DNA of 64,000 nt, taken from Sitta carolinensis. Taxonomy: Eukaryota > Chordata > Aves > Passeriformes > Sittidae. Under the pieces are notes generated by a model. The model searched no databases and had not been told where the DNA came from. It was given only the letters and a program-made list of their open reading frames with translations. This document shows positions 12,401-17,060 of this stretch, in pieces; position 1 is the first letter of the stretch, and each line of letters begins with the position of its first letter. Made by a program: the position numbers and the translations under genes. The stretch covers positions 2,737,564-2,801,563 of the forward strand of contig CM063309.1 of NCBI GenBank assembly GCA_032173965.1, given 5' to 3'.

Positions 12401-15400
12401 TTTGGGGCCAGTTCCAGACCTCTTCTGTGTCCCCACAGCTGGTGGTGAAACGTCTGGGGTACGACACCAGGGTGACCATCCTGGGCCACGTCCAGCGAGG
12501 GGGGACCCCCTCAGCCTTCGACCGCATCCTGGTGGGCACCTCCTCCCTCGCTCCGGCCCCAAATGGGGGCTCCTGGAGGTGGCAGCCCCCCCCCCGGGAG
12601 GTGACACCCCCTCCCCTGTCCTCTCAGGCCAGCAGGATGGGCGTGGAGGCCGTGATGGCGCTGCTGGAGGGGACGCCAGACACGCCAGCCTGCGTGGTCA
12701 GCCTGTCCGGCAACCAGGCCGTGCGCCTGCCCCTCATGGAGTGCGTCCAGGTGGTGAGTGGGGACAGGGGGGGACGCTGCAAGAGTCCTGAGATGTCCCC
12801 AAACCCACGCCAGGGATGGCTCCCACCCCGGCACACCCCAGGGACAGATCCCACCCCAACCCCCTTCTGTGCCCCCAGACCAAGGACGTCACCATGGCCA
12901 TGAATGAGGGACGCTTCGAGGATGCGCTGAAGCTGCGGGGCCGGTGGGTGGCACCTCCTCGTCCCTGTCCCTGCACCCCAATGTCCTCAAAACACCCCAA
13001 AACCCCAACTTCCCCAATTCTTAGGAGCTTCCAGAACAACTGGAACGTCTACAAGCTGCTGGCTCACATCCGCCCACCTGCCACCAAGGTAGGGGACACC
13101 CAAATCCCACCCTGGCACATCCCAGTGCCATTCCGGGACACCCCAACCCCATCCCCATCCAAGCCCAACCCCACTTATGACACCCCAGCCCCAGCCAAGC
13201 CCCCTGTCCCTGTCCCAGAGCGGGTACACGGTGGCTGTGATGAACGTGGGCGCCCCGGCCGCGGGGATGAACGCGGCCGTGCGCTCCTGCGTGAGGATCG
13301 GCCTCATCCACGGCCACCGCATGCTCGCCGTGCACGACGGCTTCGAGGGCCTGGCCTTTGGCATGGTGAGATCCTACAGGGAATGGGCTCTGGGGTGGAT
13401 TCGCGGTGGTGAGGGTCCTAAGGGGGAAAGGAGTTGGGATGGGGAGATTCCTGTGGGGAAAAAGGGGTGGCCGAGGCACGATGGATTTGAAGAGCTGGAT
13501 TTTGAGATGGTGAGATTCTTATAGGGAAAAGGGTGTGGGACGTGCAGGATGGATTTGAAGGGTTGGATTTTGGGAGGGGGAGATCTCAGAGGGAAAATGC
13601 GGTGCTCGGGAGTGCACGTCAGCTTTGAGGGGCTGGCTCTTGGGATGGGGAGATTCTAGTGGGGAAACAGGGTGGGAAAAGGGGGTGAAAAAGCATGGGA
13701 TGGGTTTGACAGATTTGAGATAGATTTGAAGGGCTGCGTCTTGGAATGGGGAGATCCCTGTGGGAAAAGGGTGCAAGAAAAGGGCCTGGTAAGGGGCAGT
13801 TGTGGCCCTGCAGGGATGTGGATTCCTCAGGAATTCCTTGGAATGGGGATGTTTAACCCCTGTCCGAACCCCAGCCCTGCTGTGGGTCCCATCTGGTGCT
13901 GGCCCGAGCCAGGGGACATTGTGTGACCTCAGTGTCACTCTGAGGGGGCTGAGGAGGGCCAGTGTAACGCCAGATCCTTCTCCCACCCCATTAACTCCCT
14001 GTTTCCTCCCCCAGGTGGAGGAGATCAGCTGGAATGCTGTGGGCAGCTGGACAGGGCTGGGAGGATCCAAACTGGGCACCAAGAGGTGATACCCCCCCCA
14101 TCCCTGTGTGGGGTCATTTGGGGTCCTTCTGGTGTCTCCACCTCGGCCAGGCTCATACAGGGGGGTTCCCCTTCCCAGGACTCTGCCCAAGAAATTTTTT
14201 GAGGAGATCAGCGCCAACATCAGCAAATTTGAGATCCACGCACTCATCATCATCGGTGGCTTTGAGGTCAGCGGGGTGTGGGCAGCGGGGCTCGGGCAGA
14301 GCACGGTGGGGGTGCGGTCAGGATGTGGTTAGAGGGGCACGGTTTGGGTGGGGTCAGCGTCCCCATTGTCCTGCAGGCGTTCATGGGTGGCCTGGAGCTG
14401 GTGGAGGGCCGGGCGCGCTTCGAGGAGCTCTGCATCCCCGTGTGCATCATCCCCGCCACCGTCTCCAACAACGTGCCCGGCTCCGACTTCAGCATCGGCG
14501 CCGACACCGCCCTGAACACCATCACCACTGTGAGACCCCAAACCCCACCCCAGCACCATCTCCACAGTCACACTCTGATCCTACAGCCACTGATTCCAAA
14601 CAGCATCACCACTGTGAGACCCCAACCCCCACCCCAGCACCATCTCCACAGTCACACTCTGATCCTACAGCCACTGATTCCAAACAGCATCACCACAGTG
14701 AGATCCAAATCCTGTATCCATGCTCCTCTATCCCAAACACCAGCACCATCATAGACCCAGTAAAGTCCCAATCTGATCCAAAGCACTATCTCCACAACCA
14801 TTACCACTGGAGACCCCGACGAAATCCCACCCACCCTCCTTACACCCCTTTGCCTACTCACACCCTATTTCAACGTGTGACCTGACCAACGTGTGCAGGG
14901 ATCCCAAATCCTGTCCAAACCTCCCCATTTCACGTGTACCTGATCAACAGTGTTCAGGCACCCCAACCTAGTCCCCAAAACCTGCCCCATTTCAGAGTGT
15001 CCTGACCAGCAGTGTGTAGCACCCCAATCCTTCCCCACAACCTGCCCCATTCAACTGGACCGATCAAGCAGTCAGGACCAATCTGTCCCCAACCTGCCCC
15101 ATTCAGACAGGTGACCTGATCAAGCAGTGTGTCAGGCACCCATCCTGTCCCCAAACCTGCCCCATTTCAGACAGGTGACCTGATCAAGCAGTGTGTCAGG
15201 CACCCCAACCTGTCCCCAGAACCCTGCCCCATTTCAGACGTGTGACCTGATCAAGCAGTGTGTCAGGCACCCCAACCCTGTCCCCAAACCCTGCCCCATT
15301 TCAGACAGGTGACCTGATCAAGCAGTGTGTCAGGCACCCCAACCCTGTCCCCAAACCCTGCCCCATTTCAGACGTGTGACCTGATCAAGCAGTGTGTCAG

Positions 15401-17060
15401 GCACCCCAACCCTGTCCCCAAACCCTGCCCCATTTCAGACGTGTGACCTGATCAAGCAGTCGGCCGCAGGCACCAAGCGCCGCGTGTTCATCATCGAGAC
15501 CATGGGCGGCTTCTGTGGCTACCTGGCCACCATGGCCGGGCTGGCGGCCGGCGCCGACGCCGCTTACATCTTCGAGGAGCCCTTCAGCAGCCGTGACCTG
15601 CAGGTGGGGACAGCCCTGTCCCCAGGGCAGTGAGGAACGAGAGGCTTTCCCTTCCTGACTGCGCTCCTGACCCCACTGTCGACCCCGCAGGCCAACGTGG
15701 ACCACCTGACCGAGAAGATGAAGACCACGGTGAAGAGGGGGCTCGTGCTCAGGTGGGCTTGGAGGGGGACCTTGTGTCACCCCCATGTGCATTGGGTTTG
15801 GAATCAGGGGAGCCAGGGTCTCACCGTGGTGATGGGTTAGGGATGGAGGATTTGGGATCTCACCGTGGTGCCGGAGTTTGGGATGAGAGGAATGGTTTGG
15901 GATGGGGTGAGTTGTCAGATTTGGGGCTGATCCTGTCCCTGCTGTAGGAACGAGCGGTGCAATGAGAACTACACCACAGATTTCATCTACAACCTGTACT
16001 CCGAAGAGGGAAAAGGGGTCTTTGACTGCCGGAAAAATGTCCTGGGGCACATGCAGCAGGTGGGAATTCCTTGGGAATGGGGTGAGGGTTTGGGAATTCC
16101 CCTAGGAACAGGAGCGGGGTTCGGGGGATTTCCCCAGGAATGAGATTTGGGGTCTGGGGGATTTCCCTGGCTCATCCCGGATTCTCCTGGAACAGGGAGG
16201 CAGCCCCACTCCCTTCGACCGGAATTTCGGCACCAAGATGGGTGCCAAGGCCGTGGCCTGGATCACTGGGAAGATCAAGGAGTGCTCCCGGCACGGTGGG
16301 TGCTGCTGGAGGGGGGCATCCCACAGGGACCCCAGAGTGACCCTACGTTCCCAAGAGGCCTCCCGTGGATTCTGGGGGATGTTCCCTGCTCCTGGATGAT
16401 CCCAAACATTCCCAACCTCCCCTCCCATGTTCCTGGAAGGCCCTAAGTTTTCCCAACCTTCCCTTCCTGGAAGGTCCCAGACATTCCCCATGTACCTTTT
16501 CAAGGATTTTCCCCTCCTGGAACATCCCAAACATTCCCAACCCCTGCTCCAAGGAGGATCCCAAACACTCCCAACTTCCTGTCCCAGGTGTTCCCCTGTC
16601 CCTGAAAACCCCCAAACATTCCCACCCTTCCCTCACACATCCCTGGAGGATTCCAAATGTTTCCGAGTCGCCTCCAGGAGGTTCCCAAACGTTCCGTGTC
16701 CCTCCCAGGCCGGATCTTTGCCAACTCGGCCGACTCCGCGTGCCTGCTGGGGATGCGCAAGCGCAGCCTGGTGTTCCAGCCCATCGCGGAGCTGCGCCAG
16801 CAGACGGATTTCGAGTGCGTGTCCCTGCCCGTGCCCGCCCCGGAAAGGGGGGACAAAGCCCGGGATCCCTCCCCAGGGATGTCCCCAGCCTGTCCCTGTG
16901 CTGTCCCCTCAGGCACCGCATCCCCAAGGAGCAGTGGTGGCTGAGGCTGCGGCCCATCCTCAAAATCCTGGCCAAGTACAACATCGAGCTGGACACGTCC
17001 GAGAGGGCGCACCTGGAGCATCTGACCCGCAAGGTCCTGGTCCCTGAAGCCACCCTGTGA
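9471..17060 (+). CDS. PFKM: PFKM, muscle-type ATP-dependent 6-phosphofructokinase
   Basis: PFKM catalyses ATP-dependent phosphorylation of fructose 6-phosphate to the 1,6-bisphosphate, the committed step of glycolysis, as a cytosolic tetramer. There are 22 coding exons: 9471-9560, 10359-10432, 10516-10593, 10822-11011, 11665-11830, 11912-11956, 12048-12156, 12243-12338, 12439-12531, 12628-12753, 12879-12943, 13025-13088, 13219-13365, 14015-14085, 14179-14266, 14377-14529, 15439-15603, 15691-15752, 15948-16059, 16196-16295, 16709-16814, 16913-17060. The catalytic half shows GGDGSLTGAD, SIDNDFCGTD, MGRHCG and GHVQRGGTPSAFDR; the regulatory half shows NVGAPAAGMNAAVR, VSNNVPGSDFS and GHMQQGGSPTPFDR. 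After correcting one missing G (9546-9549, in the nucleotide-binding SGGD loop) all phases close at 782 residues (human 780). The muscle paralogue is chosen from the SENP1 and ASB8 neighbours. The start ATG is 8 bases into its exon. Confidence 0.96.
14498..14710 (+). repeat. Tandem copies of the PFKM exon-16 donor region
   Basis: The genuine exon 16 ends ...ACCATCACCACT|GTGAGACCCC at 14529/14530. A segment of about 80-85 bp including the last exonic bases and the 5' splice site recurs downstream with CATCACCACT|GTGAGACCCC at 14613/14614 and a decayed CATCACCACA|GTGAGATCC at 14697/14698. Each copy also carries CAGCACCATCTCCACAGTCA. The copies are intronic decoy donors. Confidence 0.85.
14866..15438 (+). 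repeat. Tandem copies of the PFKM exon-17 acceptor and exon start
   Basis: Roughly nine head-to-tail copies, with a period of about 57-68 bp, precede the genuine exon 17. Each carries the polypyrimidine/AG string CCCCATTTCAG followed by ACGTGTGACCTGATCAAGCA or a variant, that is, the first 20 or so coding bases of exon 17, then GTGTCAGGCACCCCAACC in place of the true continuation. The copies nearest the exon are almost perfect; those furthest upstream (14.87-15.05 kb) are diverged. Only the last copy, at 15439, runs into the intact exon. Confidence 0.92.

What the first reader, a model, noticed from the sequence alone, without database searches (positions are those of the whole stretch)
14498..15439. 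PFKM intron 16 has tandem decoy copies of both its own splice sites
The intron starts with two extra copies of the exon-16 end plus donor (CACCACT|GTGAGACC at 14613, a decayed one at 14697) and ends with about nine copies of the acceptor plus the first ~20 coding bases of exon 17 (CATTTCAG|ACGTGTGACCTGATCAAG) every 57-68 bp. Both ends of one intron have been expanded at the splice junction. Decoy exon starts diverge into GTGTCAGGCACCCC, so a transcript using an upstream acceptor would carry extra in-frame or out-of-frame repeat. The near-perfect copies adjacent to the real exon suggest expansion outward from it. I know of no described case in PFKM.
Basis: seen in the sequence. Interest (0 to 1): 0.75.

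Follow-up and report, generated by a model that had tools for sequence, protein, structure and literature searches.

The report
Exon-edge repeats fill a bird intron
One intron of a songbird's muscle phosphofructokinase gene has grown by copying its own two splice junctions over and over, a clear case of the 'exon stuttering' recently described on tiny bird chromosomes.

Summary
The window holds a passerine-like PFKM gene (coding exons 9471-17060). Intron 16 (14530-15438, 909 nt) carries tandem copies of its own donor junction (84-bp unit: two copies with intact GTGAGA, one decayed) and of its own acceptor junction (about 67-bp unit: nine copies before the real site, six keeping AG). By a small splice-site matrix two donor and five acceptor decoys equal or nearly equal (5.8 against 5.9) or exceed the real sites. 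Decoy donors would add 28 or 56 in-frame residues; the five acceptor decoys tested give premature stops. No protein record with the insert was found, and 11 of 11 songbird records read have the plain junction. Copies near exon 17 are nearly identical, distal ones decayed. The class is known: 'exon stuttering', found in 236 chicken introns (Hron et al. 2026, PMC12954441), and amphioxus 'mirages'. Two copies pass that screen's threshold. Intron 13 has an older array of the same kind, a presumptive 5' intron perhaps another. Arrays are not enriched at junctions here. Most likely this is tolerated minisatellite growth; function is unproven. Both junctions of one intron expanding is the unusual part. 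Copy number is unverified: no reads were available and the own-genome search did not complete.

The parts
14377..14529 (+). PFKM coding exon 16; its last 15 bases belong to the 5' repeat unit
14515..14703 (+). 84-bp donor-junction array: real junction after 14529, copies after 14613 and 14697, all with GTGAGA
14790..14831 (+). decayed donor-junction copy, GT lost
   Evidence: scan score 24.2, maximum of 300 shuffles 22.5; alignment
14867..15106 (+). four distal, decayed acceptor-junction units (starts 14872, 14933, 14994, 15055); one of these four keeps AG
15107..15438 (+). five acceptor-junction units (starts 15107, 15171, 15238, 15305, 15372), all with AG; 61-67 of 67 matches to the last unit
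15439..15603 (+). PFKM coding exon 17; its first 22 bases recur exactly in the decoys at 15238 and 15372
13418..13801 (+). older array of the same kind in intron 13: copies of the exon 13 end plus donor
   Evidence: three of the scanned copies score 27.0-29.2, 300-shuffle 99th percentile 25.8, maximum 27.3; alignment

Best explanation
Intron 16 is a double-ended case of exon stuttering (a boundary-spanning minisatellite, a 'mirage'). Short segments straddling each splice junction were duplicated in tandem, probably by slippage or repair during replication and then by unequal exchange in GC-rich DNA. Selection keeps the exon copy intact, so copies accumulate on the intron side and the older ones decay. 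Splicing most likely still joins the outermost donor to the innermost acceptor, because these sit against the full exons, and the decoys leave with the intron. Shown: the copies, their gradient, their splice signals, the reading frames. Inferred: the mutational mechanism and normal splicing.
For: Both arrays and their copies. Gradient towards exon 17. Two 3' copies (44.1 bits) pass the published exon-stuttering threshold of 42.1 in my run of that rule, with no hit of 20 nt or more in 20 shuffles. Same process in intron 13. Region rich in tandem arrays: 25.7% of the window, 31% of PFKM intron bases. Quadruplex motifs cover 29% of array bases and 8.8% of the rest. 11 of 11 songbird records read have the plain junction, and no record with the 28-residue insert was found. 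In amphioxus mirages RT-PCR suggests normal splicing (PMC3087553, passage).
Against: Length variation between individuals and dot-chromosome location, both parts of the published picture, were not testable. The donor end shares only 15 exon bases and fails the published 20-nt limit; the intron 13 hit (20.3 bits) fails the score. Median array cover of the 22 introns is zero, below the 7-93% medians reported for chicken dot chromosomes. The quadruplex motif is in 4 of 9 acceptor units and in neither donor unit tested. The real acceptor is no stronger and no more open than its decoys, so why it should win is not shown. A base-level frame slip in exon 1 leaves assembly error possible.
Confidence: 0.85

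Rival explanations
1. The decoys are used: alternative donors give PFKM forms with 28 or 56 more residues, or upstream acceptors divert transcripts to premature stops, so array length tunes PFKM output.
For: Matrix scores: donors 5.9 real, 5.9 and 5.8 decoys; acceptors 3.1 real, 3.1-5.8 for five decoys. Donor extensions are in frame and open. Predicted folding does not hide the decoys. In IFI6, downstream minisatellite repeats serve as splice donors (PMC4526556, passage).
Against: No protein with the insert at E 0.001 among 20 candidates. 11 of 11 songbird records have the plain junction, though these are gene models of other species whose intron was not seen. The insert would fall after residue 551 of muscle PFK, inside the PFK domain. 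16 of 187 internal GT and 16 of 205 internal AG of other introns score as high as the real sites, so scores do not show use.
Confidence: 0.07
2. Assembly artefact: the arrays, or their copy number, arise from mis-assembly of repeats.
For: Exon 1 is one base short of the relatives' frame, and the neighbouring ankyrin/SOCS-box gene appears to change frame. Nearly identical tandem units are hard to assemble.
Against: Distal copies are diverged and carry their own changes; two different units, 84 and 67 bp, sit at the two ends; an aged array of the same kind is in intron 13; similar arrays in chicken PHF8 were confirmed in raw nanopore reads (PMC12954441). A wrong copy number of the proximal units stays possible.
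Confidence: 0.05
3. Splice junctions are preferred sites of expansion, for example through transcription or splicing-linked breakage.
For: Both ends of one intron, plus the intron 13 donor and a presumptive intron 0 donor, are affected: 4 of 44 junctions at p 0.01 or less.
Against: 3 of 44 junctions lie in TRF arrays, against about 6.4 if arrays fell at random within each intron (fractions, sum). Copies of the intron 0 motif also lie upstream of the presumptive exon (8050-8095, score 26.9, 99th percentile 22.3), so that array is not strictly tied to the donor. One gene is too small a sample.
Confidence: 0.1

Closest known systems
Exon stuttering on avian dot chromosomes (Hron et al. 2026, PMC12954441; read: abstract, sections 7, 9 and 16, part 1 of 2 of section 8)
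   Same: Local tandem expansion in an intron in which the unit holds an exon edge with its splice donor or acceptor; exon itself intact; GC-rich bird gene; imperfect units of tens of bases.
   Different: Here both junctions of one intron are expanded; in the passages read the worked example (PHF8 intron 18) has one exon-derived and one purely intronic cluster. Length variation and chromosome were not tested here; host is a songbird, not chicken.
Amphioxus 'mirages' (BflGb6, BflGb9, Adh3; PMC3087553, passages)
   Different: Different lineage; the globin examples are single-ended in different genes; there RT-PCR was done and haplotypes differ in copy number.
IFI6 (6-16, G1P3) minisatellite with multiple splice donors (PMC4526556 passage and the title of Turri et al. 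1995 in its reference list)
   Same: Tandem repeats that provide extra splice donors beside a real one.
   Different: There downstream repeat donors are reported in transcripts; no such evidence here. No acceptor array is mentioned in what I saw.

Membership tests
Exon stuttering (Hron et al. [quoted passage not shown]
Exon stuttering (Hron et al. 2026) | BLASTn-short exon hit of 20 nt or more and 42.1 bits or more in a proximal intron | tested here: met
   2 of 3 hits pass (44.1 bits, both intron 16, acceptor side); the donor side gave no hit of 20 nt; intron 13 hit fails at 20.3 bits; 0 hits in 20 shuffles. My run used one strand and skipped their one-source filter.
Exon stuttering (Hron et al. 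2026) | Repetitive intron | tested here: met
   83% of intron 16 lies in TRF arrays
Exon stuttering (Hron et al. 2026) | Extensive length variation between individuals | not testable with these tools
   no reads; own-genome search unanswered
Exon stuttering (Hron et al. 2026) | Location on a dot chromosome (typical: 190 of 236 introns; not required) | not testable with these tools
   window not placed; GC 64% and array cover 25.7% are compatible
[quoted passage not shown]
Amphioxus-type mirage | Regular splicing in spite of the copies | not testable with these tools
   no RNA; plain junction in 11 of 11 songbird protein records is indirect
IFI6-type functional donor minisatellite | Transcripts that use repeat donors | tested here: inconclusive
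   no protein with the 28-residue insert found; RNA not available

The most novel reading that the evidence does not exclude
PFKM intron 16 is a natural splice-competition device: matched tandem donors lengthen the enzyme in frame at one end, matched tandem acceptors abort it at the other, both on a length-unstable array, so that individual birds differ heritably in muscle PFK output.
Probability: 0.06. Interest if true: 0.75.

Novelty: new member of a known kind. Interest (0 to 1): 0.33.

Why it matters
It shows what looks like exon stuttering in a songbird and in a core glycolytic muscle gene, with both junctions of one intron expanded. Because the local signals of decoys and real sites are alike, it is a good natural test of what makes the spliceosome choose the copy next to a full exon. 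It also warns that read aligners and gene predictors can misplace such a junction.

Tried and rejected
Own-genome search: the same request seven times, never answered. Folding of 14480-15520 to see whether decoys are hidden: no. Mean unpaired probability is 0.22 for the real donor against 0.19 and 0.34, and 0.54 for the real acceptor against 0.58-0.80 for five decoys. Half-copies inside the 84-bp unit (14552, 14636) and a stretch at 14732-14770 do not exceed shuffles and are not claimed. With longer flanks, the donors of introns 1, 4, 18, 20 and the acceptors of introns 0, 1, 4, 13, 20 gave nothing above the 99th percentile of 200 shuffles. Intron 12 acceptor and intron 21 donor reached p 0.015 with low scores among 44 tests and were left as chance. 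The bacterial promoter and terminator scan has no bearing on a bird gene and found nothing. The splice-site matrix rests on 20 introns of this gene; the real acceptor is third lowest of 21 in leave-one-out scores. Selection for loss of AG in decoys was considered (3 of 9 lost) and is too few to judge. A first rank correlation of 0.82 counted the reference unit against itself; the value used is 0.76.

Full report
What the window holds. Twenty-two coding exons at 9471-17060, with GT-AG introns, make a muscle-type phosphofructokinase gene; exons 2-22 read as one open frame. Exon 16 aligns to residues 501-551 of muscle PFK chains, and exons 16 and 17 hit Pfam PFK. Of 120 listed protein relatives (5554 found), the eleven at 98% identity over the queried 131 residues are all songbirds, so the source is very probably a passerine (inference).

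The observation. Intron 16 (14530-15438) is 909 nt long, the longest of the 21 introns between coding exons, of which 14 are 136 nt or shorter. At its 5' end an 84-bp unit repeats 15 nt of exon 16 plus the donor. At its 3' end a unit of about 67 bp repeats the intron tail plus the first 22 nt of exon 17. A scan gives nine acceptor-junction copies (20.0-42.0; maximum of 300 shuffles 19.5) and three donor copies at 32.1, 24.2 and 22.2 (maximum 22.5, 99th percentile 21.6; the last passes only the percentile). Six of nine acceptor copies keep AG.

History. Matches to the exon-proximal unit, from distal to proximal, are 55, 58, 54, 51, 61, 64, 67 and 65 of 67; without the reference unit the trend is Spearman 0.76, exact one-sided p 0.018. 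Growth next to the exon with older copies decaying outward is the simplest reading; homogenisation of the proximal units would look similar. The last five units differ partly by ACAGGTG against ACGTGTG, in the order ACAG, ACAG, ACGT, ACAG, ACGT, which points to repeated rearrangement (inference).

What the decoys could do. In a matrix built from the gene's other 20 introns, donors score 5.9 (real), 5.9 and 5.8, and acceptors 3.1 (real) and 3.1-5.8 (five decoys); the sixth AG-bearing copy (14994) scores below 2. Local signal thus does not set the real sites apart. Decoy donors would add 84 or 168 nt, in frame and open; the five acceptor decoys translated all run into a stop after 23-24 residues of extension. 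A search with the 28-residue insert had 20 candidates and no hit at E 0.001. Eleven of eleven songbird records read, from six named species, have the plain junction: ten NTITTTCDLIKQS, one (P0099) NTITNTCDLIKQS. These are gene models of other species and speak weakly.

Is it special within the gene? A junction-copy test (14 exon plus 14 intron bases against the rest of the intron, 200 shuffles, floor 0.005) on 44 junctions, one presumptive 5' exon included, gave 0.005 for three (intron 0 donor, intron 16 donor and acceptor), 0.01 for the intron 13 donor and 0.015 for two weak ones. Intron 13 holds an aged copy series of the exon 13 end and donor. The intron 0 case is less sure: the 5' exon rests on weak N-terminal similarity split over two frames, and the motif also occurs upstream of it. 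Tandem arrays cover 25.7% of the window and 1987 of 6418 PFKM intron bases; 3 of 44 junctions lie in arrays against about 6.4 if arrays fell at random within introns. So junctions are not preferred targets here. Quadruplex motifs cover 29% of array bases and 8.8% of the rest; in intron 16 they are in the four proximal units of nine and in neither of two donor units.

Comparison with the known. Hron et al. 2026 (PMC12954441; abstract, sections 7, 9 and 16, part 1 of section 8) describe 'sequence stuttering' of introns on chicken dot chromosomes and its 'exon stuttering' form, in which an exon edge with its splice donor or acceptor is copied through the intron: 236 introns in 115 genes, 190 of them on dot chromosomes, exon parts of median 36 bp, median 4 copies. 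They note repeat expansions in other birds, and speculate about quadruplexes, repair or meiotic events. Their BLASTn rule, run on this gene, gives three hits, of which two pass, both at the 3' end of intron 16; 20 shuffles gave none. Amphioxus mirages (PMC3087553, passages) are the same kind of structure; IFI6 is a case in which repeat donors are used. PFKM is absent from the main text of Hron et al.; its supplement was not readable here. Ten paper searches listed no paper that I recognised as describing this intron; only listings were seen for most papers, and the library lacks most subscription journals.

Verdict. The finding is real and well seen; its class is known. The double-ended form and the songbird setting are modest additions. 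A function is unproven and unlikely. Copy number needs reads.

Noticed in passing
13418-13801: Intron 13 holds an aged tandem series of the exon 13 end plus donor (about 68-bp unit); of four copies aligned, one keeps ATG|GTGAGA, the others read GG.
   Followed up: yes
8279-8696: 17-bp array, about 25 copies, unit CCCCGCAG|GTCAGTGCT, right after a presumptive 5' exon of PFKM (8167-8286): 12 exact CAGGTCAGTG. Possible further donor array; the exon is supported only by weak similarity split over two frames.
   Followed up: partly
9471-9560: PFKM exon 1 is one base short of the frame seen in songbird relatives, near a run of G; likely an assembly slip or a real frameshift.
   Followed up: partly
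18241-18870, minus strand: Ankyrin/SOCS-box gene (SOCS box E 3e-12; probably ASB8, recalled name) that appears, by eye, to change frame once.
   Followed up: partly
15107, 15171, 15305: Three acceptor decoys read CAGACAG|GTGACC, putting a donor-like site (matrix 6.3, above the real donor's 5.9) four bases after the acceptor, like a recursive splice site.
   Followed up: no
14587 and 14671: Acceptor-like CTCTGATCCTACAG|CCA (matrix 6.8) lies 27 nt before each intact decoy donor, outlining two in-frame 27-nt micro-exons.
   Followed up: no
PMC10172847 (passage): PFKM is named among blue tit genes whose germline-restricted-chromosome copy shows over tenfold higher expression than the ordinary copy in at least one sex; whether this window is such a copy was not tested.
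   Followed up: no
1-64000: Tandem arrays cover 25.7% of the window (159 TRF rows), GC is 64%, and quadruplex motifs cover 29% of array bases against 8.8% elsewhere.
   Followed up: partly
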